A stretch of 64,000 nt of DNA from Fodinibius sediminis (GTDB lineage: Bacteria > Bacteroidota > Rhodothermia > Balneolales > Balneolaceae): assembly GCF_900182555.1 (NCBI RefSeq), contig NZ_FXTH01000001.1, positions 407,494-471,493 of the forward strand. The letters run 5' to 3'. Position numbers and translations under genes: made by a program. Positions 16,594 through 35,004 of this stretch are shown one piece after another. The notes under the pieces are model-generated. The model worked only from the letters and a program-made list of their open reading frames with translations. It was not told the origin of the DNA and ran no database searches. Numbering within the stretch: the first letter of the stretch is position 1; each line of letters starts with the position of its first letter.

Positions 16594-19500
16594 TTACCCA
16601 ACCTGCACTTCATTTAGCTTCTCTACCTTATCGATAAGCAGCTCAATGATATTTGCTTTATCATTAAATACTCCCTCAATGCCGTCTTCATTGATAAAGC
16701 TAAAGGGAGGCTCATAAAGATCAGCAACCTCCAAATGACCATTTTGAGTATAAAATTCGATCATTTGTTTAATAAACTGAATCTGAGTGGAGCTCAATCG
16801 TTTGTCTTGCAAAAATTCTTCAAACTCTTTCATTACTGCATCTCGACTGAGACCCGTAGAGGAACGTATAAAATTAATAAGCTCCATTCCTTCACCCAAT
16901 ATTTCGTGAAAATCATCGGTTGACACCTTGGGATCGACCTCCACCAGAAACTCTTCTAATGTCTCAACATCTTTATCTGTTAGTGGTTCGCCATTACGGA
17001 TTTTTTCGATGATGAGATGATTTTTATGCTCCTCAATAAATTTTATTAGCTTCCTTTTGTACCTTTTTGGGTCAACTGCAGATTCATTGACAGAATCAAT
17101 TACAGTTGGCTCACCAAAATTATCTTCGAAATTTGTATATACTGGCTCTCTTTTTTTCGCATCAATAAGATGCATTAGCTCACGGAGATTCTTTCGAACT
17201 TCGTCGAGCTGCAGTAACTGAGGAGCTTCCCAAAACTCCTCGCTGAGAACCTTTTCTAGCGTCGGCCTTACTTTTTTGACTGCAGGAATATGTCGTTTGG
17301 AGTAAAGATTTTCCGACAGCGCAATGACATTATTTTTTGTCGCCCTCTCTTGCAGAACACCATCTAAGAGTTCGTGCTGAATGGTCAACATCAATAAGTC
17401 GAACCTTCTGCTCATCTCATCCTCAGTAAGATCGACTGGCACTAACTCTGCCAATTTTCTTACTATCTCCTTTCTCTCATGCGATTCAAGGTGATCCCAT
17501 ACCCCACGGTTTTCCAAACGGTGAATTAATTTCAGATGAGGACGAACCTGAACGCTCTGTTTTTCAAGATTGGAAATTTGCTGATGCAACAGGTCAAGAA
17601 TTGAATTTCTATAGTTCTGCAGCTCTTCGTCCTGTTTGTATGGATCGTTCTGTAGCTTAGCCGTGAGTAATAGACGCTTTTCAAAATTTCTTGCGCTTAG
17701 AGACGCACTAGATGAGTTCTCATATCCCTCTGGATTCTCCTCGAAGAACTCAAAATTGCCACAGTAGTCAAAAATCAGAAATTTTTCTTTATGCTGTCCT
17801 GGTCCAAACAAATCAGGCCGCAATCTGGTACCACGACCGATCATCTGATAAAACTTTGCTTTAGATCGTACGGGTTTAAAAAAGACTAAGTTTACCACAT
17901 CCGGAGCATCGATTCCCGTATCCAACATATCCACTGATATAGCAATAGCTGGCATCTCCCCGGGAGCACAAAATTTATCAATCAGATCCTGCGAATAATC
18001 AACCTTATTGTCTATAACCTGAGCAAAGTGTCCGGCATAATGCGGATAATTCTCATCAAATATCTTTTGAATGTACGTGGCATGCCGGTGATTCTTAGCA
18101 AAAATAATTGTATCCCCAACACGATCACCTCCTTCAACCTTTATTCCGCCTTCCATCAACTGTTTTAAAACTTTTTCTACCGTATCACGATTATACAGCC
18201 AACTATTCAGTTTAGCAGGTGGAATATGATCCGGTATGGCACCTGTTTCATCATCAGCCAAAAGGTCATCATATTCTTTCTGTTCTTCGGGCGATAAATC
18301 AGAGTATTTAACGCCCTCAGTGAGAAATTTTCCCAATACAGATATTTTCTTAGGTGGAACCAAGAAGTTATCATCAACAGCCTGATCTAATCCATAAGCG
18401 AATGTAGGGTTCCCCTGTTCTGTTCTGAACAACTCATAAGTATCGTGATCAACATCACTCTTAGGTGTAGCAGTAAGCCCTAATAAGAGCGAATCAAAGT
18501 AATCAAATATGGCCTGATATTTATTATATACACTTCGATGAGCTTCATCGATGATAACCAAGTCAAAATATCCAGGATCAAATTTTCTTTCCCCTTCTTC
18601 AAGTTGCTCAATCTGATTAAGCATGGTCGGATATGTACTAAAAACAACCCTGGCCGAGGTATCATTTTTTTCTTCCACCAGATTGACAATAGGTATATCC
18701 GGAAGATGTTCGGCATAAGCCTTGTAAGCCTGGCGCACCAAAGCATTCCGGTCAGCTAAGAAAAGAACACGTTTAGCCCATTTATACCTAAGTAGTACAT
18801 CAGTAATAGAAATGGATGTTCTGGTTTTGCCCGTTCCCGTAGCCATGGTTAACAACGCGCGCCGATGTCCCTCCTGAAAGCGCTCAGAAACCTTCTGCAC
18901 CGCCATATTCTGATAGTAACGGCCTGAAATATCCTGGTCCACATCCACGAGATGAAGCTTCTCCTTTTCCCTCTTTTGAAAAAATAATTTCTGCAGACTG
19001 GATTTGGTATAGAATCCCAAAGTAGGTCTGGGTGGGTACTGTTTATCATCCCAGACCCATATTTCGTAACCATTGGAAAGAAAAATTATGGGACGCTGCC
19101 CAAACTCTTCTTCAAGACAATCAGCATATAATTTCCCTTGATGTTTCCCCTCTTCATAACTTCGTGTCGTTCGTTTGGCTTCCACCAAGCCCAGTGGCTT
19201 ACCATTGTCATCCCATAGTACATAATCGACATATCCCGTCTCAGATGGATTAGGCATACCATCAACTTCGTACTCACGGACATTGGGCATCCCAGGATCC
19301 CAACCAGCTTCCCGAAGCATGACATCAATAAGCAGCTCTCGCGTTTCGGCTTCATTATAATCGTGGTTGTCAGCAAATTTACGGGTCTGTAACCGCATCT
19401 GCTTAATCTCACGATTACGTTGTTTGAATTCTTCATCTTTCGCTTCAAGTGATTGCTGTAGCTCCCGAAGTTTCTCCGCCTTTTCTTCCATCTGCTCTTC

Positions 19501-19971
19501 CAGTACTTTTAACTCCTCAGAAGAAAGAAGGTTATCAAAATCGACTTCTGGAACCTTATTTGGGTCGAACTTAATCTCAGGTTTTGGTTGTTCATCTGTT
19601 GTATAGGTTCGATATAACCAGAACAGTACATGAAAGGTCTCTTTACAAATTTGAAGAGCCTTATCTTCCGTTACCTGTTTATTATCATGAAGGGCAAGGT
19701 TTCCAGCCTTTCGAATAACATGGATCTTGTTGTAAACCTTGTAATCAACAATCTTCTTAAATGGCATGGCATCGGTAATATTATAGAGACTCGTATCATA
19801 AGGAAGGGATAAATCCTCATCATATTCGTACATCCACAAGACTACCTGCTCTATCAAATACCGAGCTCGACCACACGCCCCTCTTGGGTCAAATCGTACC
19901 AATTGCTCAACCGCCTTTGCATCTTCTACAAATTCGGGCCAATCTGGCTGTAAAAAATCAAAATTTGACAT
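16594..19971 (-). CDS. hsdR: Type I restriction enzyme subunit R with N-terminal DUF4145 domain
   Basis: This 1125-residue protein starts with a DUF4145/HEPN-like domain (about residues 10-120, 'ARYLIEQVVLWMYEYD', 'IHVIRKAGNLALHDNK'), then a coiled coil (about 140-200). The HSDR_N nuclease follows, with 'GYVDYVLWDDNGKPLGLVEAKRT' supplying the Asp...Glu-x-Lys. The SF2 helicase motor has 'TGTGKTRTSIS', 'VIIDEAHRS' and 'GLTATPK'. The C-terminus is EcoEI-R type. It cleaves and translocates DNA with HsdM and HsdS, which lie upstream on the same strand but are separated from it by a TIR gene and unknown genes. All nuclease and motor motifs are intact. Confidence 0.93.
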   Translation of the reverse strand: MSNFDFLQPDWPEFVEDAKAVEQLVRFDPRGACGRARYLIEQVVLWMYEYDEDLSLPYDTSLYNITDAMPFKKIVDYKVYNKIHVIRKAGNLALHDNKQVTEDKALQICKETFHVLFWLYRTYTTDEQPKPEIKFDPNKVPEVDFDNLLSSEELKVLEEQMEEKAEKLRELQQSLEAKDEEFKQRNREIKQMRLQTRKFADNHDYNEAETRELLIDVMLREAGWDPGMPNVREYEVDGMPNPSETGYVDYVLWDDNGKPLGLVEAKRTTRSYEEGKHQGKLYADCLEEEFGQRPIIFLSNGYEIWVWDDKQYPPRPTLGFYTKSSLQKLFFQKREKEKLHLVDVDQDISGRYYQNMAVQKVSERFQEGHRRALLTMATGTGKTRTSISITDVLLRYKWAKRVLFLADRNALVRQAYKAYAEHLPDIPIVNLVEEKNDTSARVVFSTYPTMLNQIEQLEEGERKFDPGYFDLVIIDEAHRSVYNKYQAIFDYFDSLLLGLTATPKSDVDHDTYELFRTEQGNPTFAYGLDQAVDDNFLVPPKKISVLGKFLTEGVKYSDLSPEEQKEYDDLLADDETGAIPDHIPPAKLNSWLYNRDTVEKVLKQLMEGGIKVEGGDRVGDTIIFAKNHRHATYIQKIFDENYPHYAGHFAQVIDNKVDYSQDLIDKFCAPGEMPAIAISVDMLDTGIDAPDVVNLVFFKPVRSKAKFYQMIGRGTRLRPDLFGPGQHKEKFLIFDYCGNFEFFEENPEGYENSSSASLSARNFEKRLLLTAKLQNDPYKQDEELQNYRNSILDLLHQQISNLEKQSVQVRPHLKLIHRLENRGVWDHLESHERKEIVRKLAELVPVDLTEDEMSRRFDLLMLTIQHELLDGVLQERATKNNVIALSENLYSKRHIPAVKKVRPTLEKVLSEEFWEAPQLLQLDEVRKNLRELMHLIDAKKREPVYTNFEDNFGEPTVIDSVNESAVDPKRYKRKLIKFIEEHKNHLIIEKIRNGEPLTDKDVETLEEFLVEVDPKVSTDDFHEILGEGMELINFIRSSTGLSRDAVMKEFEEFLQDKRLSSTQIQFIKQMIEFYTQNGHLEVADLYEPPFSFINEDGIEGVFNDKANIIELLIDKVEKLNEVQVG

Positions 19972-20062
19972 GATGCAAATAGATTATTGCCGAGTAAAAA
20001 ATAACCAACGTAATTTTCAATTATAATGTAATAGATTCTTACTTAAATGAATAACTACTTGA

Positions 20063-20776
20063 CTAACCTGTATTTAGTTCATCACTACTAATCATATCCA
20101 GAAACTTATTCCCGAAATCAGTAGTCAATTTGTTAAGCTTGCCTGGCATATGCCGACCATCTTCAAAACTTTCAAAAGCTACAAATCCCAGTTCATAGAG
20201 CTCCTTCCAGCATTGAGTTATTAGCTTAGCCCGATCTCTATATTCTGGATATATATCGAAGAAAACATCTTTGGATTGCAAAGAATTAAATTCACTCCCT
20301 AAATCTATACCCTTTTCTCTTACTATGTCTTCTGGAGATTGAAAAGTTTTCAAAAGCAAAATATGAAATGGACTTATCCTTTCAATCACATTTAAAAAAT
20401 GATCAGCCCAGTCAAACATTTATTTATCTTTTGAAAGATCGAGAGAGGTATTGATCACAATCCCCTTTAGGGCGTTAATTTTTTCTTCTTGATGATGTTC
20501 TTGAGCTAAATTGGAGGCTTTAATCAAAATTGTATTGAATTCATCACTTCCTGCTAAATCTTCGAGCTTTATTTTATCCTGTTCTTCAAGTCTTAAAAGA
20601 CGAAGAGAGATATCTTTTATCCATTCCTCCCTTCTTTGTATATAAAGAGGTTTAGAAATTGCAGTAAAGGTCTTATAAGCTAGATTGCCAAAAGGGACAA
20701 GGTTAGATACAAGCTCAATGGTTTGATGTCTTGCCTCACTTTGTAACTCTTCTCTTTTGTCTCTACGAGAATTCAT
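20063..20776 (-). pseudogene. Split unknown protein: one frame interrupted by an in-frame TAA
   Basis: Two 118-codon segments lie in the same frame, joined by TAA (20420-20422) directly followed by ATG. The first ends in 'HHQEEKINALKGIVINTSLDLSKDK' and the second begins 'MFDWADHFLNVIERISPFHILLLKTF'. Read through, they look like one 237-residue helical protein of a kind I recall from other genomes, in which a 'QEEKLxALRNAV' helix leads straight into a 'FLxLIDxLTPxHLxLL' segment. So this is probably a recent nonsense mutation rather than two genes. Function unknown. It sits between the membrane-anchored protein and hsdR in the defence operon. Confidence 0.5.
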
Positions 20777-20808: not shown

Positions 20809-22290
20809 TCACAGACCAACATAATTAAGTATACTTTCCATGTTAATCGCATTAATAATAGCAACTAGAATCATAACAAAGGTAAAGATCAAGATCCAGA
20901 ACTGTAGCGTATTGTTAGATTCTGATAGTTTGAGGTTTACTTTAGTAGTAACTAACCTTGATAATCGATCACTAATCCTATTTACTTGTTTGCTGTTAGA
21001 TTCAATAGACTCAGCAGTTCTTTTTAAAACTTTTTTCCTGGCCTCTAAAAAACTGAAATCTTCTCCACGTCTCTCTGCTATCAAGTTGAAATCGTACATA
21101 TCAAATTCAAAATCTGGTCTATCAATACTTTGAAGTAATTCTCTGGTAAATGGCGATGAATTCATCTGGAGAGCTGAGATTTCATCATCGATAATCTGAA
21201 GTTTCTCCAATGCATCGGCTGGATTCATTGAATCAACTGCTCCCAGTTTATCTCTTACTTTTTTTAACTTTTGATCATACCCAAAGACTAAATCCGTTAG
21301 ACTCCAAAAACTTAAGGTCTTACTTAAGTAGTGAAGCCAACTAGAAATACTATCAATTCTCTTATCACCATACATCTTCAACTTTTCTTCAGACAAAACT
21401 TTTTCAATGTTACCTCCAATGGTTATAGTTGACCGCTTAGCAAGAAATTTTTCATCAATCGTCATATGTAACTCTTTGAGATCGATACTTTTATACACAT
21501 CATATTCTGTTTCAAACCCAACTATATTCAAATATGACTCATAAGAATTGTGTGTGTCCGTTAAAGGATCATCATTTTCTAATAATATCAATTCCACTGT
21601 TGGATGAGCTCTCTCCAAAAAATTGGAATCAAACAATCCCGGAAAGTGTGTTGAAATCCAATTCGTACACTTCGTTCTTAAAAATTCTAATTGGAGGTTG
21701 TAAGCTTCTTCTTTCTGATGAATAGGTGCATGATACCTCGTGCCATGCTTAACCTTTTCAGCATAAGTCTCATAATAATCCCTCAATGGTTTTTCTACGG
21801 AATTTCTCAACTCATCGACAAAATGAAATTGAGTTGCTAGTATTGTTGTGCTGGGGACAAACTGGTGTAAATACGAGGAAGCATACTTTACTCCTTCCGG
21901 TAAGGGAGCGTTAAGAAAAGAAGGTACATTGGGTGAATTATCGGGTTTAATAACACCTATATTATACCAACTACTTCGATATCCTGAAGAACGCATAATA
22001 TTTAATCGGTCTAAAATATTGCGGTGATGGCTGCGCTCTAACTGATCGACTAAATCTAATTTTTTTATACCATGGATTAAACCTTCGATATAAGAGGGGG
22101 GATACGCTTCAAAAACCCATAGAGATGGCAAGTAAATTCCTATGTCTTCTGAGGGTGTTGATCTTTTATTTTTTTCAGGGTCCCGTTTTCTGATATTTTC
22201 TATATCCTTCTTTACTATTTCATCAATTTCAGAATCTTCACTTCCCAGATAATTTTCAAGTTTGTCTCTATATTTGGAAAATGGATTCAT
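20809..22290 (-). CDS. Unrecognised 493-residue protein with C-terminal membrane segment
   Basis: No family recognised. The protein is soluble-looking for about 455 residues, with a charged N-terminus ('DEIVKKDIENIRKRDPEKNK') and a long helical region ('EARKKVLKRTAESIESNSKQVNRISDRLSRLVTT'), then a single membrane helix ('FWILIFTFVMILVAI', about residues 464-482) near the end. That makes it a tail-anchored type inner-membrane protein. It lies inside the type I restriction gene cluster between the TIR gene and hsdR, with 143 bp upstream that could hold its own promoter. A membrane-linked effector or sensor role is a guess from position. Confidence 0.6.
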   Translation of the reverse strand: MNPFSKYRDKLENYLGSEDSEIDEIVKKDIENIRKRDPEKNKRSTPSEDIGIYLPSLWVFEAYPPSYIEGLIHGIKKLDLVDQLERSHHRNILDRLNIMRSSGYRSSWYNIGVIKPDNSPNVPSFLNAPLPEGVKYASSYLHQFVPSTTILATQFHFVDELRNSVEKPLRDYYETYAEKVKHGTRYHAPIHQKEEAYNLQLEFLRTKCTNWISTHFPGLFDSNFLERAHPTVELILLENDDPLTDTHNSYESYLNIVGFETEYDVYKSIDLKELHMTIDEKFLAKRSTITIGGNIEKVLSEEKLKMYGDKRIDSISSWLHYLSKTLSFWSLTDLVFGYDQKLKKVRDKLGAVDSMNPADALEKLQIIDDEISALQMNSSPFTRELLQSIDRPDFEFDMYDFNLIAERRGEDFSFLEARKKVLKRTAESIESNSKQVNRISDRLSRLVTTKVNLKLSESNNTLQFWILIFTFVMILVAIINAINMESILNYVGL

Positions 22291-22433: not shown

Positions 22434-23381
22434 TTAAAAAGGTAAATCGTCTTCCCACTCTTCGCTTTCTTTCTCTTCAAAGTCAGCCATAGAGACACTC
22501 GGCTTGCCAAAATCATCCATGAATGTGTTGAAAGCTTTTAGCAAATCCGTATCCTGTAGATTCTTGTTGTCAGTTATTCCTAAATGCAATGCTTCAACCT
22601 TCTCCTCGGGAAAATCATCAATTTTACTGATCGCTTTTATACGATTTAAAGCTGCTTCTGAATTGTTTGACATCAAAAATAAATCAGAAAGCTTATTGAT
22701 CAATTTGGATCGTGTTTTATCATGACTACTTAGTATCTGAAAAATTCCTTCTGCAACCTGCCCAATTGTTTTATTATTTGCCTGGAATCCCTGAAACTTC
22801 CCAATAAATCCATAGGGATCCATGTTTTTTCTAACCGGTATAACCAGTACTCCCCGTCCAATAGCAACACCGATCTCCTGATCAGTCCAATTGCTCTCTT
22901 TAAATCCAGGCATTAGAATAGCACATAATGCATCCATTGAGAAAAGCCCCTTCTCAATTTCTTTTTCCCAGAGCTTAGTTGGTTCAATATCTTCGTGAGC
23001 TACAAATGAACTGATACCATAGGGCTCAAGAGCTCTTTTCAATTGCGTAACCTTCACTTTAAATGAAGAAAGATGACTTAAAAACAACCTGAAATGCCCT
23101 GGTTTCCAGAATGTCGCTTCATCTTCTTCAACAATCGGAGTTTCAGATAAGGCCTTGTGTTTTATATCTAATTCTGATGCTATTTCCAGGACTATGTCAT
23201 CATCCACGCCAGCCAGTACTTCTTTTACATAAACCCATTTACTATTTTGACTTGGCTCGTGATCTGTCGGTATCCCATACTCTGTGAAATAGGCATCAAT
23301 ATCCATAAAAGTCATTCTCTCTTGAAGCTCACGACCAATAATACTAATCAGCTCTCTTTTTTCTAACTTATTCATAGTCAA
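22434..23381 (-). CDS. TIR-domain protein embedded in the hsd operon
   Basis: Residues about 1-75 are a helical N-terminal domain ('RELISIIGRELQERMTFMDIDAYFTEYGIP', 'NSKWVYVKEVLAGV') of a type I associate with AbiJ and other abortive-infection proteins. Residues 97-220 are a TIR domain: 'FRLFLSHLSS', 'GISSFVAHEDIEPTKLWEKEIEKGL' and 'KESNWTDQEIGVAIGRGVLVIPV'. The Trp-x-x-Glu region and the conserved Glu are present, as in NAD-cleaving TIRs. The tail is acidic (EEKESEEWEDDLPF). The start overlaps the hsdS stop by 14 bases, so it is translated with the restriction system. An NADase back-up effector is the likely role, by inference. Confidence 0.8.
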   Translation of the reverse strand: MTMNKLEKRELISIIGRELQERMTFMDIDAYFTEYGIPTDHEPSQNSKWVYVKEVLAGVDDDIVLEIASELDIKHKALSETPIVEEDEATFWKPGHFRLFLSHLSSFKVKVTQLKRALEPYGISSFVAHEDIEPTKLWEKEIEKGLFSMDALCAILMPGFKESNWTDQEIGVAIGRGVLVIPVRKNMDPYGFIGKFQGFQANNKTIGQVAEGIFQILSSHDKTRSKLINKLSDLFLMSNNSEAALNRIKAISKIDDFPEEKVEALHLGITDNKNLQDTDLLKAFNTFMDDFGKPSVSMADFEEKESEEWEDDLPF

Positions 23382-24585
23382 AAGCTCTTTGCATCAACGA
23401 TGAAAAAAGTTCCTTAGACTTCTCTTCTGACTTTTCAAGAGCTGATCTTTCTTCAATAATTCGCTGCCTAATTGCGCTGAACTTTTTTTGACGCTCCAGA
23501 CTAGGGACAAGTACCTTAATTTTCTTGACCTCCTTCATGCTCACATTAGGCTGCAAAGAGGTTGAGGCATATCTTTCGATCTCTCGCTTGAAATGTTGTG
23601 TATAGATAAATGATGTAATATAATCTTCCGTAACTTTATCGCTGTCTACACGAATTCTAGCAACCCTTTGATTCAATAGAGCTGGCAAGTCATCTTCATG
23701 TACAACCACTGCCTTAACTGCATCGAGACTATTAATGATTGGACGCGTTAGTGCCAACAATATGTCTCCCTCTTCCAAAGAGTACCTCTCATGCTCTTCC
23801 AAATATGATGAAGGTAAATACTGTACTTCTGACCAATCTATATCTATGTAATGGACATTGCCAATTTTAACAACCTTTATACCATCCTCAGCATCATCAA
23901 TAAAATTATCACTTTTGAAGGCATATCCTCCCTGCATATCAACCAAGTCACCAAATTCTACTTCGGTTAAGCCTTTTGGATTAGTCACTGGATCTCCAAA
24001 CATATCTAAAAATATGCTCTGGATTAGCCAGTCATAGCGATTTTGCATTTCATCATCGATATCGATAAGCCGTTGAACCTGATCTAGTTGAGTCGCAATT
24101 TCGTTTTGTCTTTTTACTTCCGGAAGTGGGATTTTCGTATTTTTTAAGTACCTATTTAGTTCAAGGTTTCGAATTCCAGTAGTTTTATTTTGGTATAATT
24201 CACTTTGACCTTTCAAATATGAATGGAGCAACCCATAATGGACATATTTTGGAACCACACTTTTCTTTGGTCTTAAAGCACTAGTAAAATTACTAAAGAG
24301 ATATTTATCCCCATTTTGAATATCAAAAAAAACGACCCTACCTACAGGTTGGTTTTTGCTACCTCCAGACTTTTCAATGATTATGTCACCAGGTTTGAGT
24401 TTCTTTTCCTTAATTTTCTCTTCAGAAATCTTCCGATAAGCAATATCCTCTAAATCGATGCGTCCATCTCCTGAAAAATTGGTATTCCTTATAACTGGAA
24501 CACCTTCACATTCTTCTTCAGGCTCGTCTCCCCATTCACCACTTACAGGATCCTCAATAATTTCTGAAACTTTGACCCTCTTCAT
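23368..24585 (-). CDS. hsdS: Type I restriction-modification specificity subunit
   Basis: The 405-residue protein has two target-recognition domains. The first ends in 'IPLPEVKRQNEIATQLDQVQRLIDI' and the second in 'VLVPSLERQKKFSAIRQRI', the usual central and C-terminal conserved helices of HsdS. The second domain opens with 'TEVEFGDLVDMQGGYAFKSDNF', the standard start of a recognition domain. HsdS sets the DNA target for HsdM and HsdR. It overlaps hsdM by four bases at its start and the TIR gene by 14 bases at its end. Length is normal. Confidence 0.92.
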   Translation of the reverse strand: MKRVKVSEIIEDPVSGEWGDEPEEECEGVPVIRNTNFSGDGRIDLEDIAYRKISEEKIKEKKLKPGDIIIEKSGGSKNQPVGRVVFFDIQNGDKYLFSNFTSALRPKKSVVPKYVHYGLLHSYLKGQSELYQNKTTGIRNLELNRYLKNTKIPLPEVKRQNEIATQLDQVQRLIDIDDEMQNRYDWLIQSIFLDMFGDPVTNPKGLTEVEFGDLVDMQGGYAFKSDNFIDDAEDGIKVVKIGNVHYIDIDWSEVQYLPSSYLEEHERYSLEEGDILLALTRPIINSLDAVKAVVVHEDDLPALLNQRVARIRVDSDKVTEDYITSFIYTQHFKREIERYASTSLQPNVSMKEVKKIKVLVPSLERQKKFSAIRQRIIEERSALEKSEEKSKELFSSLMQRAFDYE

Positions 24586-26057
24586 ATCAATTCCTCCAGT
24601 TCATCTAATATTTTTATTCTCTCCTCTGCCAATTGTCTAAGCCCTACACTCCCATTTGTTCCATTTATAATGTTTTTGGGATTTTCATATTCAACCTTTT
24701 CATATTCCTGTTCTTTATAACGACTAATAGACAAATCGTACTTTTGTTTGACAATTTCTTCTTTGGATACTAAAAAACTTTGATCTGTACGTTTTCGATT
24801 TTTTTCTTTATCAATATTTCTAAATCGATTTAGGATATCGGGGATATCATTTTCATCAGTTTTTTCTCTTTTATCATCTAAGGAAAACCCATCTGCTTTC
24901 ATATCATAAAACCAAACATCATCGGTTCCACCCGATTCAGTTTTCGTAAAGAGAATTACAGCAGTACTTACATTTGCATAAGGTTTAAATACCCCACTTG
25001 GCATTGAAACAATTGCATTTAGTTGTTGTTCATCAACTAAGATTCTACGAATTTTCTTGTGGGCCTTTGATTTTCCAAATAGAACCCCTTCTGGAACTAC
25101 TACAGCAGCACGCCCACCTGTTTTGAGTGCTTTTAAAAATAAAGCAAGGAAGAGCAACTCTGTCTTTTTAGTTTTTGTGGTCTGTAGCAAATCAGTAGCG
25201 ACACTATCATAATCGAGAGACCCCTTAAAAGGTGGATTAGCTAATATTAGGTCATACTTTTTTCGCAATTTATCAGTTTCAGTAGATAACGAATCTTTAT
25301 AATCAACCGTCGCCCCCTCAAAACCGTGCATAACCATATTCATATTTCCAATCCGCAACATGCTTCGGTCAAAATCATAGCCGGTAAACATATCCGATTT
25401 GAAGTGTTTGCGCACCTTTTCATTGATCATGTCCTGTGCATGATTCTCTCGGATGTATTCTCCGGCAGCCACTAAGAATCCAGCCGTACCACAGGCAGGA
25501 TCAGCAATCTTATCAAGAGGTTTGGGCTGTGTCAACTCCACCATCATTTTAATGATATGACGAGGGGTTCTAAACTGCCCGTTTTGTCCTGCCGTATTCA
25601 GCTTGGAGAGCATATATTCATAGATATCGCCCTTTGTGTCTCGGTTTTTCATGTCAAGCTGATCAATTAGCTCAACTACACGAGACAAAGTGGAAGCTTT
25701 GGGGAACATAAAAATGGCTCCTTCCATATGCTTGCGATAGGTATCCCCGTTTTTGCCACCCAATTCTTTAATAAAAGGGAATACTTCATCCCGAATACGC
25801 TCAAACATCGCCTTTGGATCGAGCTCTTTAATATTGCGCCAGCGCAAATGTTCTTCATCCGGTCCAAAAGTTGGATTTTTTATGGGTTCCCCCGTACGTT
25901 CTGCTTTCTTCTCTTGGCGAAGCTGTTTGTCATCTAATCCTTTGATAAAAAGTAAATATGTAAGCTGCTCGATAACCGTCAGCGGATTTGAGATCCCCGC
26001 CGTCCACAGGGTCTCCCAAATTTTGTCAACTTTATTGCGAATTTCTCCTGTAAGCAT
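24582..26057 (-). CDS. hsdM: Type I restriction-modification N6-adenine methyltransferase
   Basis: The 491-residue protein has the HsdM helical N-domain followed by the N6-methylase domain. SAM-binding motif I is 'IADPACGTAGFLVAAGEYI' and catalytic motif IV is 'YDLILANPPFKGS', both intact. It methylates adenine in the target chosen by HsdS and so protects host DNA from HsdR. It lies 20 bp downstream of the SbcC-like gene and overlaps hsdS by four bases. Its intact motifs contrast with the degenerate ones in the larger methylase-like protein at 30.6-33.4 kb. Confidence 0.94.
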   Translation of the reverse strand: MLTGEIRNKVDKIWETLWTAGISNPLTVIEQLTYLLFIKGLDDKQLRQEKKAERTGEPIKNPTFGPDEEHLRWRNIKELDPKAMFERIRDEVFPFIKELGGKNGDTYRKHMEGAIFMFPKASTLSRVVELIDQLDMKNRDTKGDIYEYMLSKLNTAGQNGQFRTPRHIIKMMVELTQPKPLDKIADPACGTAGFLVAAGEYIRENHAQDMINEKVRKHFKSDMFTGYDFDRSMLRIGNMNMVMHGFEGATVDYKDSLSTETDKLRKKYDLILANPPFKGSLDYDSVATDLLQTTKTKKTELLFLALFLKALKTGGRAAVVVPEGVLFGKSKAHKKIRRILVDEQQLNAIVSMPSGVFKPYANVSTAVILFTKTESGGTDDVWFYDMKADGFSLDDKREKTDENDIPDILNRFRNIDKEKNRKRTDQSFLVSKEEIVKQKYDLSISRYKEQEYEKVEYENPKNIINGTNGSVGLRQLAEERIKILDELEELI

Positions 26058-26077: not shown

Positions 26078-28534
26078 TTACTCTAGTTCTATTAAATTTT
26101 CTACTTCCAAAACATCCTGGTAATAGGGATGGCAGGTGAATATAAGTACTTGGTGCTCTTCCGCAAACTTCTGCAACGCACTCGCCGCCTGCTTGCGACG
26201 GTCCGGATCCATATCTACCATAGGATCATCAAGTACTAACAAACTCGATTGGTCATTTAAGAAATATTCGGAAGCCGTTAACTTCCAAGCTAGTGCTGTA
26301 AGGTCTTTGGTCCCGTGTGAAAGTTTTTCAAAAGTCAATGCCGTCTGTTCAGGAGTTAAAAACGCATCGGGCAACTCACCATCCTGCTTAACCTCCTGAA
26401 ATCTACCATCGCTCATCTCACCAAGCCAACCTGTAAATGACTCTACCAAAGGCTGGTAGGTTTCATCTTCCAAACCAGCTAAGATATCAGTTGTTTCCTC
26501 CTTAACCTTAGCAATACTCTCAGCTTTCTGCTTAATCCTTTCAAAATTTGATGTTAGCTCATTGACTACCTCCTCGTACTCATCTGAACTCTCCTGAGGC
26601 GCGCCGCCGTTAAGCTCGGCAAGCTCTTCTCTTAGGTCTCCTCTCTGCTCCTTAAGGTCATCAATTGAACCATCCAGAGAACCCAGATAATTATTAAAGG
26701 CCTTAACTGAATCGAACTGCTCCGGCAAATCAGGAAGTTCTTCAAGGCGGCCTTCAATTTCTTTTTTGGAACTGGTCAGATCCGCTCTTTCAGAAAACAG
26801 ATTATCAATATCATCATCGTACTCATCCTTCCAAGTGCTGAGGGCTTCACGCATTTTGTCCAGTTCATTCTTCAACTCTCTGCGCTTTTCCTGCAACTGG
26901 TCACGCTCTTCTTGTATAACGCCCAACTCACGTACACCTTCGACATCACCGGCCTCTTCCAGCTTGGTTTTAAGATCTTCATACTCATCATCCCCCAGCT
27001 CGTCCTTAAACTGTCGGGTCGCCTGATTTAGCCTTTTCTTGTAATCTTCATAGAGCTTGTTATCGGAAACAGCATCTTCAAAGTCCTTAACTTCCAGTTT
27101 TTCCAATTTTCCTTTGAGCTGCTCCTCCTTAGCCTCAAGCTCTTCGATAACGGATTCCAAGTCATCTGTCGAAGACTTAACTGTTAGCTGAAGGGTATCA
27201 GTTTTAAGAGTAACAAACCCTTCCTTTTCTACCTCTAAATCTTCTCCTTTTGAAATTTCCCAGCTAGCTTCCTCCCCATCAATATTACTGACTGTTATTT
27301 CAGTATCTTGAAGGGCCGTAACGGAAAGCTTGAGTTTAGATGCTCTTATTGTGGTACGCAGATCCCGTATTGTACCTTTTAACTCCCTTAGCTCAGCAAT
27401 ATCCTTTTCGGTAATCTCCTTAGCTTCTTCCAGGTCTTTTCTTGCCTCCTTGATCCGATTTTCTAGCTGGCTGAGTTTCTCTACTCTTTGCTTCAGATTC
27501 TCAATCTTTGATTTTTTTGCAGCCTTTTGTTGCTCTTCGGCTAAATCGTCTAACTGCTCATTCAGTTCTTCAAGTTCTGGAGTCAGGTTCTCGATTTTAT
27601 CTTCATAAACAGGCCACTTCTTAGCAATCTCTTTAACCCGACCAAACTTTTCCTCAATGGTCTCAAGCTTACTCTCCAATACTTCTCGCTGTTGCAACTC
27701 TTCCTGGATCGGTGATAGGTTACTGTATTCTTGCTCTTTTTCACTCAACTCAGCATTTAATTCTTCGAGTTGGCTATTGAGCTCATCCAGCTGCTCTTCA
27801 TAGGAAATGATTTTGTCATAATGCTTCCGAGCGTTTGCCTTTTGATACCAAGCTTCAAGCACTACTCCAACACCCTGTTGCCAGGGGTTTTGAACTCCTC
27901 TGTCTCGGCCACTTGAATCTTTTTGAGGATAGTTTTTATCTCGATCCCATTTACCAAAGTACGTCTTAAATTCTGATTCCACTTTCTCACGGAATTTATC
28001 AACTGACATTCCTCCGGCTTCCATCACATTCTGACGCAATACATCACTGAGCTCCTGCTGTACTTCAGAATGCTGATCCATACGCTCCATAATCTCATGC
28101 AATCCAGACTGACGAGACATCATAACCTCTCTTACCGTTGAAGGACTTGCAGGAATCAGACTTTCAATAATACTTTGTACATTATCTTCGTCATTAACTT
28201 CAGTACCAGCCGGTTTAATTAGTGTAGCCTCCCCATTACGAAGCCCTGGCCTCCACGTCTTTCTGATTTCATAACAAGTATCAGGATCACTTTTATAAAT
28301 CATAAGCGTAACCCTGATAACATCTCCACCAATCGGTAAAAATGGATCCATTTTATCATCAAAATCTCGACTCGTTAAATTTGATGATGTCAAAAGCCCA
28401 TGGTGAATCGCATGAAAAATCGTTGACTTTCCAACTTCGTTGGGACCCAATACAAGGTTTAGTCCGTCAGTCAGATTCACTTCTTTCTCTTGAATACCTG
28501 CAAATGGATGTAGTTTTATGGACTTAATTTTCAT
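26078..28534 (-). CDS. SbcC/YhaN-like SMC-type ATPase without zinc hook
   Basis: I use the ATG at 28534 ('MKIKSIKLHPFAG'); a GTG at 28546 would add four residues. The 818-residue protein has an N-terminal ABC half with 'LGPNEVGKSTIFHAIHHG' (Walker A), a long coiled-coil middle (about residues 230-680) and a C-terminal half with 'LSHGTKDLTALAWKLTASEY' (signature), 'LLVLDDPMVDMDPDRRKQ' (Walker B) and 'FTCHP'. No Cys-x-x-Cys zinc hook is present, unlike Rad50/SbcC, so it is closer to YhaN-type proteins. It overlaps the SbcD-like gene by 11 bases; together they should form a DNA-end processing complex within the defence operon. Confidence 0.85.
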   Translation of the reverse strand: MKIKSIKLHPFAGIQEKEVNLTDGLNLVLGPNEVGKSTIFHAIHHGLLTSSNLTSRDFDDKMDPFLPIGGDVIRVTLMIYKSDPDTCYEIRKTWRPGLRNGEATLIKPAGTEVNDEDNVQSIIESLIPASPSTVREVMMSRQSGLHEIMERMDQHSEVQQELSDVLRQNVMEAGGMSVDKFREKVESEFKTYFGKWDRDKNYPQKDSSGRDRGVQNPWQQGVGVVLEAWYQKANARKHYDKIISYEEQLDELNSQLEELNAELSEKEQEYSNLSPIQEELQQREVLESKLETIEEKFGRVKEIAKKWPVYEDKIENLTPELEELNEQLDDLAEEQQKAAKKSKIENLKQRVEKLSQLENRIKEARKDLEEAKEITEKDIAELRELKGTIRDLRTTIRASKLKLSVTALQDTEITVSNIDGEEASWEISKGEDLEVEKEGFVTLKTDTLQLTVKSSTDDLESVIEELEAKEEQLKGKLEKLEVKDFEDAVSDNKLYEDYKKRLNQATRQFKDELGDDEYEDLKTKLEEAGDVEGVRELGVIQEERDQLQEKRRELKNELDKMREALSTWKDEYDDDIDNLFSERADLTSSKKEIEGRLEELPDLPEQFDSVKAFNNYLGSLDGSIDDLKEQRGDLREELAELNGGAPQESSDEYEEVVNELTSNFERIKQKAESIAKVKEETTDILAGLEDETYQPLVESFTGWLGEMSDGRFQEVKQDGELPDAFLTPEQTALTFEKLSHGTKDLTALAWKLTASEYFLNDQSSLLVLDDPMVDMDPDRRKQAASALQKFAEEHQVLIFTCHPYYQDVLEVENLIELE

Positions 28535-29636
28535 CTTGTACCTCACTAATTAATTCATATGCCGTTTGTAACGCCTCTTCTTGATCGTTTTCAATAAACC
28601 TTGATAATAATCGGTCAGGAAAAGATTCCTGCGGAAACTCTTCTTCAACCTGTTCTTTCGTAATTCTCCGCTTTAGGTCCGAGTCATCCAACTTTAGATA
28701 GAAGAATGCCTCTCGAAGCTTTGGGAAAATTTCTTCATGCCAACTTTTACAAGCCTCTTCTTCAAGCTTACCGTTAATAGTTAATCGACAGACAACCTCT
28801 TGGCTTTCCTCTTGTTCAGCCCTTTGCAGCAAGTTTTCTAGTTCTTCTTTTGAGGTTACATGCTCATCCCAATTTTCAAATCGATATTTGCCGGTCAATA
28901 ACTGTTGAACGTACACCTCTTTTGATTCCCCGATCTCTACTAACAATGCCGTTCCACCGTGCGGGCAATTTGCTGTGTCAGGTTCAGGAGTTCCTGAATA
29001 TAATATTCGGTCCTTCTGTCCTGGGTTATCTGGCCATGGCACATGGATATGTCCCAACAGCCAAAGGTCAACCCCACTATCGGACAACTCTTCTTGAGTC
29101 ATCGGATAGTGTTCATCATTCATATCAGGAGCAACGCCCGGGACACTTCCATGGGCAATCCCGATATTGATTAACTCGGAATCTTTTTCAACGTCGGCAA
29201 TCCAACCTATTTCGTTTTCTGATGAATGCTTTGAATGACATGGCGCCGGGTATATTGTTGCCGGCAAATCATAGTCTCCCAATGATTTTGGAGCTTTCTC
29301 ACCTAACACTATTACATGATCATCCTTGGCATCATTAACATATCGCCATAAATCACTTTCGGGCGTCACATAATCATGATTTCCAGGCAACAACAGTACT
29401 GGACCTCTTTCAAATCTGTTCAAAATTTGGATAACCCGTTCTACATCAGCTTTGTTCATCCTCGGGCGTTCAAACAGATCACCAGCAATAACGATCACAT
29501 CACATTGCTTTTCATTCGCTTTGGATATCAGATTTTCAAGTGTCTCATATCGCGCCTCACTTAATTCTTCCGAAACTTCTGCATACCCACTAAATCCCCG
29601 GCCAAGATGAACATCTGCAAAATGGAGTATTTTCAT
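28524..29636 (-). CDS. SbcD/YhaO-like DNA exonuclease (metallophosphoesterase)
   Basis: The 370-residue protein carries all calcineurin-like phosphoesterase motifs of Mre11/SbcD: 'FADVHLGRGF', 'VIAGDLFE', 'LLPGNHDY', 'IAHGSVPG' and 'LLGHIHVP', within residues 1-200. The C-terminal part is acidic and helical and probably docks on the SMC-like partner encoded next. SbcCD-type complexes cut hairpins and blocked DNA ends. It is 18 bp from the receiver-HEPN-like gene, so it belongs to the same transcript. Motifs are intact. Confidence 0.88.
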   Translation of the reverse strand: MKILHFADVHLGRGFSGYAEVSEELSEARYETLENLISKANEKQCDVIVIAGDLFERPRMNKADVERVIQILNRFERGPVLLLPGNHDYVTPESDLWRYVNDAKDDHVIVLGEKAPKSLGDYDLPATIYPAPCHSKHSSENEIGWIADVEKDSELINIGIAHGSVPGVAPDMNDEHYPMTQEELSDSGVDLWLLGHIHVPWPDNPGQKDRILYSGTPEPDTANCPHGGTALLVEIGESKEVYVQQLLTGKYRFENWDEHVTSKEELENLLQRAEQEESQEVVCRLTINGKLEEEACKSWHEEIFPKLREAFFYLKLDDSDLKRRITKEQVEEEFPQESFPDRLLSRFIENDQEEALQTAYELISEVQDEN

Positions 29637-29654: not shown

Positions 29655-30575
29655 TTAATTTTTCAGTTCTTGTAACCAGCTATAGTACCAATCCAAAATA
29701 TTAAGAAGGGAAAAGGTAGCTGACTTCAAAGTTATATTACTTACGTTATAAGAATAGTCATGGCTGCCAGCTTTACTACATAAGTTTCTTATTTGACTCA
29801 ATTCCCAACCAATATGATTAGGCACAATCCTATCATTTGCTTTGAATGTATTCTTTTTAGTATCACCATTTTCTTTCACTTCAATATCAACGCTCCGAAA
29901 TGTAACATAACGTTCACACCAAGTCGCAGCTATTTCATCTTCATCCGTGTCATAAAATTCTTTCGGTATAAATCCCAAATCTGCCATTCCCTTATATAAA
30001 GGTTCTAAGAATGTTCTAATAAGAGACAAGTTTGCTCTAATTACTGATTGTTCTTTACTATCTAGGGCATTAAGGATTTGTATCAAGTCAAGTGCTTTTC
30101 GATCTGGAAAATATTTGTTTACAAATAGGCTAAATACATTCGGATATTTCTTTTTGTATTTATACATATTAGAATTCTCAATCATACCCTTTAGAGTATC
30201 GAGCATCTCATCCTCTTCTTTAAACTTTTCAAAGATGTCAATATCCTCGTACTCAGTAACGTCCTGCATATCTTCGAAATAACCAGTATTAATTACTCTC
30301 GGAATTAATTTTCCTTCTTCTCCAAGTTCGCGTAATTTTTTTAATGCTTTATAAGCATGGACGTCCTTTTCTACTGGTTTATCAGCCGAAAGATGCCCTT
30401 TCCCATCTAATATTAAACCATCATAAAACGGAAAATTGTCGGTTAGTTCTGCAAGTCCATCTTCTAGATTGTCAAAGTGTATTAACTCAATATCCTTATA
30501 AGCTGCATTATCTTCTAAGGAATCAGCATAATCTTCTTCATTTTCAATAATCATAACTTTTAAAAAATCTGACAT
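29655..30575 (-). CDS. Response-regulator receiver fused to a HEPN-like C-terminal domain
   Basis: Residues 1-130 form a receiver (REC) fold: acidic pocket 'VMIIENEEDY', phospho-acceptor Asp57 in 'GLILDGKGH', switch Thr97 in 'IPRVINTGYFED' and Lys117/119 in 'DIFEKFKEED'. The acidic pair is Glu-Asn-Glu rather than the usual Asp-Asp, so phosphorylation chemistry may differ. Residues about 135-306 are all-helical with 'HIGWELSQIRNLCSKAGSHDYSY', which resembles the Arg...His region of HEPN/abortive-infection C-terminal domains but with a longer Arg-to-His gap (Arg263, His272) than the usual RxxxxxH. No DNA-binding output domain is present. It starts one base after the histidine-kinase gene stops, so they are a natural pair. 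Confidence 0.72.
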   Translation of the reverse strand: MSDFLKVMIIENEEDYADSLEDNAAYKDIELIHFDNLEDGLAELTDNFPFYDGLILDGKGHLSADKPVEKDVHAYKALKKLRELGEEGKLIPRVINTGYFEDMQDVTEYEDIDIFEKFKEEDEMLDTLKGMIENSNMYKYKKKYPNVFSLFVNKYFPDRKALDLIQILNALDSKEQSVIRANLSLIRTFLEPLYKGMADLGFIPKEFYDTDEDEIAATWCERYVTFRSVDIEVKENGDTKKNTFKANDRIVPNHIGWELSQIRNLCSKAGSHDYSYNVSNITLKSATFSLLNILDWYYSWLQELKN

Positions 30576-30576
30576 A

Positions 30577-33417: not shown

Positions 33418-33457
33418 AAGTCTGTATATCTGACTTTTATATCTTGGTTAGTATACC

Positions 33458-33473
33458 TGCAATTCTCAGACCA
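33458..33473 (-). promoter_or_regulatory. Sigma-54 (-24/-12) promoter for the defence operon
   Basis: On the minus strand the sequence TGGTCTGAGAATTGCA keeps the essential -24 TGG and -12 TTGCA of the sigma-54 consensus at exact spacing (GG, ten bases, GC). It ends 41 bp upstream of the kinase gene's start codon, leaving a leader of about 30 bases. A sigma-54 activator gene is divergent from it. The -24 CACG part is not conserved. Confidence 0.72.
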
Positions 33474-33483
33474 ACACCATAAC

Positions 33484-33551
33484 AGTTGATAAAAAGCAAT
33501 AAAAGGATAAATTTAGTATCAACTATTTTAAATAACTATCAATAATTGATA
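33484..33551. promoter_or_regulatory. Four TTGATA half-sites: candidate activator-binding sites
   Basis: AGTTGATA (33484-33491) and TATCAACT (33517-33524) form a separated inverted repeat. TATCAA-TAA-TTGATA (33537-33551) is a compact palindrome ending one base before the activator's ATG. All four share TTGATA and lie upstream of the sigma-54 promoter relative to the operon, where an enhancer-binding protein should sit. The palindrome over the activator start would also allow self-repression. Confidence 0.6.
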
Positions 33552-33552
33552 T

Positions 33553-35004
33553 ATGAAAATCCTTATCTCTTGGATTGCTTATAATAACGATTTCGATGCT
33601 GGGGAAGTAAATGAATCTGGCCCGACATATAATTTTCACAATTATTTCTACGAAGAAGAAGAAGGATATGATAAACACCTCTTATTAGCTGCAGAATCTT
33701 CAGAGAATCTCAGAATTACTCAGCTGCAGAATAAATTAGAGCGTGATTTTCCACAGCATCAGATCGAACCTAAGATTATTAAGATAAATGATCCTATTGA
33801 TCTTAGAGAAGTAAAAACGAAAGTTGAACCCATACTATTAGATCTTTCTGAACATCAAATAGATATCTTTTTCTCTCCAGGTACCTCAATTATGCAGGTA
33901 GCTTGGTATGTATGCCATTCATCTCTTGGTCTTAACACACGATTAATACAAGTTCGCCCTTCGAGATATTCAGAGAACGATGAGCCAGAACGCTTAATAA
34001 TGGACGTTGATACATCTGATATTCCAAAGGGTATAATTTTAAAACAAAAACACTTAGGATCTAAAACCTACGAACATGTAGAAGACTATCTAATTACCGA
34101 ATCAATTAAACCTGTTTATGAAAACGCCAGTAAAATTGCAGAAACCGATAATATAACCACCTTAATTCACGGCGAAACGGGAACTGGTAAAGAACACCTT
34201 GCCCGTTTCATCCACGACAATTCTATCAGAAGTGAAGAACCTTACATTCCCATAAATTGCTCCGCTTTTAATGACAACTTATTAGAATCAAGACTTTTCG
34301 GTCATAAAAAAGGGGCTTTTACAGGAGCAAATGAAGATAAAGACGGAATATTTAAAAAAGCTGATGGTGGTACTGTTTTCCTAGATGAAATAGGAGATAT
34401 ATCACCTTATATGCAGCAGGCTTTATTACGTGTGTTAGAAGAAAAGGAGATTACACCTGTTGGGGGAACTCCTGAGAAAGTGGATGTTAGAATTATTGCA
34501 GCAAGTAACAAAAACTTGGTACAACTTTGTAAAGACGATGAATTCAGGTGGGATCTTTTCTATAGGCTAAATGTAGCTCCACTAGAATTACCTAGCCTAC
34601 AAGAGAGAGGAAAAGAAGAAATTGAAAAGATGATCAACTTTTTCATCGATCAGAAAAAAGAGACGTTAAAAAAGTCTACTAAGCTTGAGTTGTCAAAGGA
34701 GGCAAAAAGTAAACTCGTCAATTATGGCTATCCAGGAAATATCAGAGAACTTGAAAACCTAATTGAACGACTCTATGTGTTTACTGAAGATGAAGTAACT
34801 GAAAATGACATTCCTCGATTTGTGAAAGAGAATGATAATGAAAAATCCCTTCTGCTTGACGATATAGAGAAAGGACATATTAAATATGTCATGGATTTGT
34901 ATAACGGTAATCAGTCCCGTTCGGCTGATGCCATGGGTATTGTAGTAAATACTCTTAAAAGTAAAATGGAGAAATATGGCTTGGTTAGGGAAGACTTCTT
35001 ATAG
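33553..35004 (+). CDS. Sigma-54 activator with CARF-like (RtcR-type) sensor domain
   Basis: The 483-residue protein has an N-terminal Rossmann-like sensor (about 1-160) with 'FFSPGTSIMQVAWYVCHSS', a motif like the nucleotide-binding loop of CARF domains such as that of RtcR. The AAA+ domain has Walker A 'GETGTGKEHLARF', the sigma-54 contact loop 'GAFTGA' (254-259), Walker B 'GGTVFLDEIGD' and the arginine-finger region 'FRWDLFYRLN'. The Fis-type helix-turn-helix covers about 440-478. In E. coli, RtcR turns on RNA-repair genes in response to RNA ends. Here it should activate the divergent defence operon when a nucleotide or RNA signal binds. It is slightly shorter than E. coli RtcR. All ATPase and GAFTGA residues are intact. 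Confidence 0.85.
   Translation: MKILISWIAYNNDFDAGEVNESGPTYNFHNYFYEEEEGYDKHLLLAAESSENLRITQLQNKLERDFPQHQIEPKIIKINDPIDLREVKTKVEPILLDLSEHQIDIFFSPGTSIMQVAWYVCHSSLGLNTRLIQVRPSRYSENDEPERLIMDVDTSDIPKGIILKQKHLGSKTYEHVEDYLITESIKPVYENASKIAETDNITTLIHGETGTGKEHLARFIHDNSIRSEEPYIPINCSAFNDNLLESRLFGHKKGAFTGANEDKDGIFKKADGGTVFLDEIGDISPYMQQALLRVLEEKEITPVGGTPEKVDVRIIAASNKNLVQLCKDDEFRWDLFYRLNVAPLELPSLQERGKEEIEKMINFFIDQKKETLKKSTKLELSKEAKSKLVNYGYPGNIRELENLIERLYVFTEDEVTENDIPRFVKENDNEKSLLLDDIEKGHIKYVMDLYNGNQSRSADAMGIVVNTLKSKMEKYGLVREDFL

What the first reader, a model, noticed from the sequence alone, without database searches (positions are those of the whole stretch)
16594..35004. Candidate undescribed defence system: CARF/sigma-54-controlled operon joining a DNA-sensing kinase, receiver-HEPN-like protein, SbcCD-like nuclease, type I restriction and TIR
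Nine or more minus-strand genes follow a sigma-54 promoter with gaps of 1-20 bp or overlaps from 33417 down to 22434, and hsdR lies beyond. A conventional type I system is thus placed under a two-component-like pair and a nucleotide/RNA-sensing activator. I know the parts as families, but I do not know this combination as a named system.
Basis: partly seen in the sequence, partly recalled or inferred. Interest (0 to 1): 0.93.

Follow-up and report, generated by a model that had tools for sequence, protein, structure and literature searches.

The report
Dead-methylase sensor kinase heads restriction islands
Ahead of a set of restriction genes, this bacterium carries a DNA-methylase copy that has lost its usual catalytic motif and is fused to a predicted sensor kinase, followed at once by the receiver protein that it likely phosphorylates; the same gene pair recurs in other bacteria, so it would be a new kind of anti-phage alarm, although no function has been tested.

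Summary
The genes are as described, with corrections: seven, not nine, lie tightly packed from 33417 to 22434; with hsdR the run holds eleven ORFs. The pair is adjacent in all 22 loci I assembled, 20 with the methylase-like front half, one on a plasmid. In 395 phylum genomes the 11 receiver-first genomes are the 11 strongest kinase-first ones. The methylase motif is kept in 13 of 13 neighbouring HsdM but in 1 of 18 kinases. The only kinase of 22 that lost its histidine partners the only receiver that lost its aspartate. Regulator (WYL in 12 of 21 loci, CARF-sigma54 in 3) and cargo vary; SbcCD and TIR occur only here. A divergent pair sits inside a type III CRISPR operon.

Best reading: an immune two-component switch heading exchangeable restriction cargo. 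The TRD does not follow the neighbouring HsdS, and the methylase core is the fastest-changing part in two of three close pairs, so a decoy for phage anti-restriction factors is my preferred trigger. Output chemistry, the HEPN label and defence itself are untested.

The parts
33553..35004 (+). RtcR-type activator, 483 aa: CARF-like domain, sigma-54 AAA+ domain, Fis-type HTH
33515..33552 (.). AT-rich repeats ATCAAT..TTGATA / TTGATA, possible activator-binding sites, conserved in two sister loci
   Evidence: alignment; binding is inferred
33458..33474 (-). sigma-54-type promoter TTGGTCTGAGAATTGCA in front of the kinase gene (-12 GC not kept in sister loci)
   Evidence: rpoN present in genome
30577..33417 (-). 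sensor kinase, 946 aa: N-terminal region, HsdM-like domain (203-487) without the usual motif IV, one HsdS-type TRD (about 500-690), DHp helices with H708, HATPase
29655..30575 (-). response regulator, 306 aa: receiver (D57, T97, K117) plus helical C-terminal domain with conserved R187, E191, H272
28524..29636 (-). SbcD/Mre11-like metallophosphoesterase, 370 aa (cargo; no relative in the 21 other loci)
26078..28546 (-). SbcC/SMC-like ATPase, 822 aa (cargo)
24582..26057 (-). HsdM, type I methylase with intact NPPF
23368..24585 (-). HsdS, type I specificity subunit
22434..23381 (-). TIR-domain protein, 315 aa (TIR at residues 100-198)
20809..22290 (-). 493-aa protein with a hydrophobic C-terminal stretch; homologue directly after hsdS in L043
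20063..20776 (-). two consecutive in-frame 118-aa ORFs, related to single 231-243-aa genes in L025, L026, L043
16594..19971 (-). HsdR, type I restriction subunit with N-terminal DUF4145, 1125 aa
16559..16579 (-). terminator-like hairpin about 15 bp after hsdR
   Evidence: pattern match only

Best explanation
The island is headed by a conserved gene pair, a predicted histidine kinase whose front half is an HsdM/half-HsdS copy without the usual methylation motif and a receiver protein encoded directly after it; the kinase likely phosphorylates the receiver when a phage factor engages the methylase-like part, and the receiver's C-terminal domain would then act as the effector. Steps. (1) Shown: the two genes, their domain matches, their adjacency in all 22 loci and the loss of NPP[FYW] in 17 of 18 kinases. 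(2) Indicated by residues, not shown: transfer of phosphate from H708 to D57. (3) Inferred: the methylase-like part serves as bait, a decoy that type I anti-restriction proteins or a similar phage factor bind; the long helix joining the TRD to the kinase (671-733 in the model) would carry the change to H708. (4) Inferred: the receiver's output domain (helical with conserved R, E and H, or SLFN_AlbA_2 in the other class) acts on RNA or translation and halts growth. (5) Inferred: a WYL or a CARF-sigma54 regulator sets expression of the pair and of the exchangeable restriction genes behind it.
For: Adjacency: kinase-first, 8 of 8 loci (two of them, L062 and L063, were read as the same contigs L024 and L043; genes), one plasmid, and the 13 strongest hits in 395 genomes (the two weakest of these checked); receiver-first, all 8 near-full-length hits, 11 of 11, 2 of 2. 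These sets overlap and include the window; merged they give 22 loci. Gap -35 to +7 bp in 21 of 21, overlap 17 in L113. In the same 395 genomes the 11 receiver-first genomes are exactly the 11 strongest kinase-first genomes. Residues in 22 pairs: H708 21, D57 21, K117 22, T/S97 22, N843, N875, G877, G904 and G906 22 each; the one H-to-N kinase is paired with the one D-to-E receiver (L113; sequences). The kinase profile matches solved HsdM, HsdS and histidine kinases in succession; the receiver matches CheY-like folds. NPP[FY] in 13 of 13 HsdM, [NDS]PP[YFW] in 1 of 18 kinases. In L061/L060 the methylase core of the kinase falls to 46-52% identity in its three worst 60-codon blocks (dS 1.07 to saturated, against 0.10-0.30 in the kinase end), in L025/L026 to 45-70% (dS saturated in the worst block), while the neighbouring HsdM is 96% and 90% and the receiver 95% and 85% identical. 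The variable half of the kinase TRD stays at 84% and 85% though HsdS is 47% and 42%. The top PDB fold match by E-value is an intact type I methylase solved with the DNA mimic Ocr (7eew, E 1.7e-21). Other classes: 39 of 65 receiver relatives carry SLFN_AlbA_2, one of them seen next to a kinase (L059); one pair lies inside a type III CRISPR operon.
Against: No experiment. The third close pair, P0001/P0008, shows no faster change in the methylase core (90%; other parts 88-93%) and there the variable half of the TRD is the least conserved (81%). dN/dS nowhere exceeds 1, so the diversification rests on 2 of 3 close pairs and could be recombination plus relaxed constraint; recombination is clear only in L061/L060, since dS elsewhere in the L025/L026 kinase is already 0.5-1.5. 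In the four more distant pairs the methylase core is not consistently the most diverged part. The helical output domain matches no Pfam effector family and not DUF4145 by profile, so an RNase-type output is a guess; sources call several AlbA_2 receivers DNA-binding or RNA-binding. The 7eew match has low TM-scores (0.30/0.45, rmsd 26) and reflects the M+S parts; it does not show Ocr binding. 5 of 20 methylase-type loci show no hsdM in the DNA I held (L024, L059, L065, L067, L108). One kinase, L061, keeps NPPW. L113 could be a decayed pair. The genome searches scored only part of each genome's candidates (at most 5-6) and only one hit below the break was checked, so the 1:1 count is a sample.
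Confidence: 0.48

Rival explanations
1. The kinase reads DNA directly: its TRD finds the target site of the local R-M system and the methylase-like pocket senses unmethylated (non-self) sites, firing the receiver.
For: The M plus TRD layout is that of a DNA-reading methylase. As a dimer it would present two TRDs, as a bipartite type I site needs (inference).
Against: The kinase TRD is the best match of its own locus HsdS in 0 of 14 loci, 1 expected (all scores are low, 0-42 bits, so the test is weak). In two sister pairs the variable half of the TRD stays at 84-85% identity while HsdS has switched to 42-47%.
Confidence: 0.2
2. The pair is purely regulatory: it adjusts the activity or amount of the restriction enzymes (for example delaying restriction when unmethylated host sites appear) and has no effector of its own.
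For: It stands ahead of R-M genes and near WYL or RtcR-type regulators; a single operon-like run. Sources name some AlbA_2-type receivers DNA-binding or helix-turn-helix proteins.
Against: No convincing HTH-type output found by Pfam in 17 receivers. Five methylase-type loci have no hsdM in the held DNA, and one pair is in a CRISPR operon.
Confidence: 0.2
3. All eleven ORFs form one integrated defence system: CARF activator, kinase, receiver, SbcCD, HsdMSR, TIR.
For: Tight spacing of seven genes and a plausible sigma-54 promoter.
Against: Relatives of the window's SbcD, SbcC and TIR in 0 of 21 other loci; the 493-aa gene only in L043; the activator only in two sister loci.
Confidence: 0.1

Closest known systems
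Histidine kinase / response regulator two-component systems
   Same: DHp histidine, N/G boxes, receiver D-T-K, kinase gene directly before the receiver gene
   Different: Sensor half made of a type I methylase relative and a TRD; no convincing HTH-type output in the helical class of receivers
Type I restriction-modification (HsdMSR)
   Same: Intact hsdM, hsdS and hsdR follow; the kinase front half is an HsdM/half-HsdS relative
   Different: The kinase copy lacks the catalytic motif and is fused to a kinase
RtcR-like CARF-AAA-HTH activators beside R-M (Makarova et al. 2014, PMC4012209, passages seen)
   Same: Same architecture, beside restriction genes; the association with R-M is already in print
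   Different: Not beside rtcAB; the first gene after the promoter is the kinase
CoCoNuT superoperons with RtcR and type I R-M (PMC11090510, passages seen)
   Same: RtcR homologue with type I R-M in a long co-directional run; layered-defence idea. The authors also report REC domains in Type I-B CoCoNuTs and suggest regulation by histidine kinases
   Different: No McrB-type GTPase/coiled-coil CoCoNuT genes among the window proteins scanned; no methylase-kinase/receiver pair in the passages seen
Cam2, a REC-domain effector of type III CRISPR (PMC11229360, passages seen)
   Same: Receiver fold used as an immune effector part
   Different: [quoted passage not shown] here a kinase-receiver pair sits in a type III operon (L109)
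MADS and Lamassu (named from memory; PADLOC hits)
   Same: HsdM, SbcC and HsdS score against mad2, mad3 and mad5, SbcC also against LmuB
   Different: The six cluster proteins whose hit lists were shown in full have no mad or Lmu hit

Membership tests
Two-component system | DHp phospho-histidine plus HATPase N and G boxes | tested here: met
   H708 in 21 of 22, N843, N875, G877, G904, G906 in 22 of 22; profile matches solved histidine kinases
Two-component system | receiver fold with phospho-aspartate, T/S and K | tested here: met
   [not shown]
Two-component system | His-to-Asp phosphotransfer | not testable with these tools
   biochemistry needed; the H/D co-loss in L113 is indirect support
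Active N6-adenine methylase | motif IV [NDS]PP[YFW] | tested here: not met
   QLPF in the window kinase; 1 of 18 kinases against 13 of 13 HsdM
Type I R-M | hsdM, hsdS and hsdR in one cluster | tested here: met
RtcR regulator of RNA repair | CARF-like domain, sigma-54 AAA+, HTH | tested here: met
   GAFTGA (motif recalled) visible
RtcR regulator of RNA repair | adjacent rtcA/rtcB | tested here: not met
   the kinase on one side and an MFS transporter on the other; no RtcA/RtcB among the window genes scanned
HEPN ribonuclease | Rx4-6H motif | tested here: not met
   R 5-7 residues before the conserved H in 1 of 22 receivers (L108); in the window protein it is 9 before
HEPN ribonuclease | homology to a HEPN family | tested here: inconclusive
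   hhalign to DUF4145 E 0.18-0.23, like the controls; fold comparison covered mainly residues 2-139
CoCoNuT | McrB-like GTPase with coiled coil and CnuC/McrC | tested here: not met
   none among ten cluster proteins and ten flank proteins
MADS | mad1-mad8 gene set | tested here: not met
   mad2, mad3, mad5 models hit the methylase, SMC-like and specificity proteins; no mad hit in the six proteins with complete lists; four lists were capped at 25 rows
Lamassu | LmuA effector with LmuB SMC | tested here: not met
   LmuB-type hits to the SbcC-like protein only; no LmuA in the rows shown (four lists capped at 25); an SbcD-type phosphoesterase stands beside it

The most novel reading that the evidence does not exclude
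A new class of bacterial immunity that runs on a His-Asp phosphorelay with interchangeable sensors: a decoy type I methylase at restriction islands, a different sensor inside a type III CRISPR operon and a third short one beside a CARF gene, each wired to a receiver whose output domain (helical R/E/H or Schlafen AlbA_2) is a growth-stopping effector. The decoy class lets the cell notice a phage that disarms restriction.
Probability: 0.38. Interest if true: 0.93.

Novelty: categorically new. Interest (0 to 1): 0.85.

Why it matters
In the open-licence papers that I could search (calls named in the report) no defence system uses a two-component relay with a sensor made from a restriction methylase. 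If it works as proposed, it would show how cells detect phages that carry anti-restriction proteins, would join the two-component world to restriction and to type III CRISPR immunity, and would give a testable role to genes annotated 'N-6 DNA methylase' and 'hypothetical protein' (as on plasmid pFM-G13). H708, D57 and R187/E191/H272 are ready-made test residues.

Tried and rejected
Cognate-site reading by the kinase TRD: 0 of 14 best matches to the own HsdS, ranks 2 to 14, low scores; rejected as the leading trigger.

HEPN identity: Pfam on 17 receiver relatives, hhalign against DUF4145 with four control profiles and the motif spacing (1 of 22) gave no support; a resemblance by eye to DUF4145 was left as a lead. 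No HEPN chain was listed in the structural second look, which tested the receiver half only.

Motif I as a test of SAM binding: my pattern missed 7 of 13 true HsdM, so it decides nothing.

Viral contigs with the receiver alignment: 35 pattern matches, 0 confirmed. Rfam on 9000-40000: 0 matches. tRNA/tmRNA in the window: 0.

Dropped or partial rows: (P0001, 128 genomes) matched 25 genomes, mostly true HsdM; the 5 besides the window whose match reached the kinase half (G014, G018, G063, G087, G023) all have the receiver. One search also hit G013 (46 residues, E 3.2e-4) and G044 (two contig-edge fragments of 64 residues), not counted. One search matched 332 of 395 genomes, mainly ordinary kinases; I drew the line after the 13 strongest by the gap in E-values and checked one hit below it (G419, no receiver). 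Of 2825 plasmid records with a match 3, all of one size, covered 80% of the query and 1 was read. P0008, P0010 and most of the 65 receiver relatives have no context here. The WYL count used a model built from the same 12 proteins; 3 were verified by Pfam and one is annotated WYL. In 6 of 21 loci neither regulator was found; two of these kinases (L059, L064) begin near a contig end. L059's receiver was left out of the C-terminal profile because its output is AlbA_2. Pairs L030/L043, L055/L057, L058/L059 and L022/L024 were measured but are distant.

Literature: searches (listings) and passages gave no methylase-kinase/receiver defence pair. No paper was read whole. DefensePredictor (PMC13092281) lists HATPase and REC in the legend of its predicted systems; I could not see which genes these are, so an overlap is possible. 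Only open-licence papers were searched; the CARF survey PMC7498327 was not held and one search did not find a MADS paper.
Full report
What was checked. The finding covers 16594-35004 of a 64-kb window that lies in a 4.43-Mb genome. Two genomes listed as the same genus share contig lengths with Aliifodinibius salipaludis WN023 and an uncultured Aliifodinibius, so the host is of that genus or very near it (inference from the lengths). ORFs, Pfam and PADLOC confirm the gene list. Seven genes are tightly packed on the minus strand from 33417 to 22434: kinase, receiver, SbcD-like, SbcC-like, HsdM, HsdS, TIR. After a 143-bp gap follow a 493-aa gene, two 118-aa ORFs and hsdR. The activator at 33553-35004 is a CARF-AAA-HTH protein of the RtcR/PspF2 kind.

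Promoter. The 135-bp gap between activator and kinase holds TTGGTCTGAGAATTGCA (33474-33458, minus strand). Sites scoring 10 or more number 4 in both strands of the window, this one included, so about 0.004 are expected in this gap. Two sister loci have TTGGTATACCATTTGTA at the same aligned place and conserved ATCAAT..TTGATA repeats upstream; the -12 GC is not kept there, which weakens but does not remove the case. RpoN is encoded. Whether the genes share one transcript was not testable.

The kinase. P0001 matches HsdM (N6_Mtase, E 3.7e-36), type I specificity models and HATPase_c. Of 20 aligned relatives, at E up to 0.1, 19 match N6_Mtase, 19 HATPase_c and 9 Methylase_S. The family profile hits solved HsdM chains within positions 1-421, HsdS chains at 426-573 and histidine kinases from about 564-570 to 831. 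The model (mean pLDDT 75.9) has one long helix, 671-733, carrying H708 and a second helix, 758-787, before the ATPase domain, as in a DHp hairpin. The top fold matches by E-value are an intact type I methylase crystallised with Ocr (7eew, E 1.7e-21, TM 0.30/0.45), PacII and other HsdM chains. Motif IV, NPPF or NPPY in all 13 neighbouring HsdM, is QLPF here and is lost in 17 of 18 kinases compared; L061 keeps NPPW. So most of these methylase-shaped proteins probably do not methylate (inference from the motif).

Recurrence. Receiver-first searches gave 8 near-full-length hits in 128 genomes of the order, 11 in 395 of the phylum and 2 in 164 of another order. Kinase-first searches gave 8 loci in the species collection, a plasmid and, in the same 395 genomes, 332 genomes with a match, mainly ordinary histidine kinases. 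The 11 strongest (E 1.5e-54 or better) are exactly the 11 receiver-first genomes; the next two, G278 (1.8e-41) and G185 (5.3e-23), have the receiver directly downstream as well; the next, G419 (1.9e-20), has none and later ones were not checked. Each genome had at most 5-6 candidates scored, so these are samples. The sets overlap; merged they give 22 loci with the window, and the pair is adjacent in all 22. Gaps run from -35 to +7 bp in 21, with an overlap of 17 in L113.

Neighbours. hsdM follows on the same strand within the run in 13 of 20 methylase-type loci. In L058 hsdMS lie on the opposite strand, L056 has only HsdM pieces further off, and L024, L059, L065, L067 and L108 show none in the held DNA. 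Other cargo: GmrSD (L054, L057, L061), McrBC (L059, L060), an AAA_15 ATPase, UvrD-type helicase and radical-SAM gene (L024), AbiE (L043). In the two sister loci of the genus, activator, kinase, receiver and hsdM are shared while the genes behind differ, McrBC in one and GmrSD in the other. A WYL regulator lies near the kinase in 12 of 21 loci, as the next gene in 9 and two or more genes off in L057, L065 and L066; the CARF-sigma54 activator occurs in 3 of 21 and neither in 6. Relatives of the window's SbcD, SbcC and TIR were found in 0 of 21 other loci, of the 493-aa protein in 1.

Phosphorelay evidence. Among 22 pairs the only kinase without the histidine (L113, N) is paired with the only receiver without the aspartate (E). 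I read both sequences. One event is an anecdote, but it is the co-variation expected if H708 serves D57.

What it senses. If the TRD read the local restriction site, it should follow the local HsdS. It does not: 0 of 14 kinase TRDs are closest to their own HsdS, though all scores are low, and in two sister pairs HsdS has diverged to 47% and 42% while the variable half of the kinase TRD stays at 84% and 85%. The part that changes is the methylase core: 46-52% identity in its worst blocks in L061/L060 and 45-70% in L025/L026, against 96% and 90% for the true HsdM next door. In L061/L060 synonymous change is also far higher there (1.07 to saturated) than in the kinase end (0.10-0.30), which looks like exchange of alleles by recombination; in L025/L026 it is saturated in the worst block only. 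The third close pair, P0001/P0008, shows no such effect, and its TRD is its least conserved part. A core shaped like the target of phage anti-restriction proteins, unable to methylate, diversifying while its wiring stays fixed, fits a decoy; relaxed constraint plus recombination is the plainer alternative.

Other sensors. In L109 a kinase of the same family with an unidentified front half and its receiver sit between a RAMP (Csm5-like) gene and a Csx1-like CARF gene in a type III-A operon. In L113 a short kinase follows a protein with an RtcR-type CARF domain. The kinase-receiver unit may thus be a movable signalling part of immune loci (inference from 2 of 22).

Setting. The window continues with a TIR of ThsB type, a TPR-S protein, AbiEi/AbiEii and a phage-type integrase, then a DUF3987 protein and a relaxase, so the cluster probably lies on an integrated mobilisable element.

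Literature. Makarova et al. 2014 already report RtcR-like activators beside R-M (passages), and the CoCoNuT paper reports RtcR plus type I R-M superoperons with a proposed cyclic-phosphate RNA feedback, and REC domains in Type I-B CoCoNuTs (passages). WYL regulators beside defence genes are known (PMC9122601, passages). I found no description of the methylase-kinase/receiver pair in the searches; subscription papers were not searched, and one figure legend of PMC13092281 naming HATPase and REC in a predicted system could not be resolved.

Noticed in passing
L109 (G185:C124), 5758-8973: Kinase of the same family with an unidentified N-terminal half plus its receiver, inside a type III-A CRISPR operon between a RAMP (Csm5-like) gene and a Csx1-like gene.
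   Followed up: partly
L113 (G494:C98), 6776-10018: RtcR-type CARF-domain gene, a 435-aa kinase with the phospho-histidine replaced by N (its N-terminus resembles GIY-YIG by eye only; Pfam found just HATPase families) and a receiver with the aspartate replaced by E.
   Followed up: partly
L060 and L061, kinase columns about 120-480: A tract of 46-70% identity with high or saturated synonymous change in a gene whose kinase end is 95-100% identical: likely recombination of the methylase-like core.
   Followed up: partly
window 20063-20776: Two consecutive in-frame 118-aa ORFs where three relatives have one 231-243-aa gene; one in-frame stop separates them.
   Followed up: no
window 14667-16447: TPR-S / MAP3K-TRAF-binding-type protein (448 aa) next to a ThsB-type TIR protein (135 aa): possibly a separate TIR system.
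   Followed up: no
window 12857-14529: AbiEii toxin and AbiEi antitoxin-type genes; an AbiE pair also lies between hsdS and hsdR in L043, with relatives of both genes at the same place in L025 and L026.
   Followed up: no
window 4154-12464: Relaxase, DUF3987 protein and phage-type integrase: the defence cluster probably sits on an integrated mobilisable element.
   Followed up: no
window 1406-3877: 823-aa protein with seven DUF285 repeat matches and InlB-type repeats.
   Followed up: no
L069 (plasmid pFM-G13), 12750-27648: WYL, kinase, receiver, hsdM, hsdS, unknown, PLD-type gene and hsdR on a mobilizable plasmid; the receiver is annotated as hypothetical.
   Followed up: yes
L043 14262-15767: Homologue of the 493-aa window protein (E about 3e-151) directly after hsdS; no family known.
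   Followed up: no
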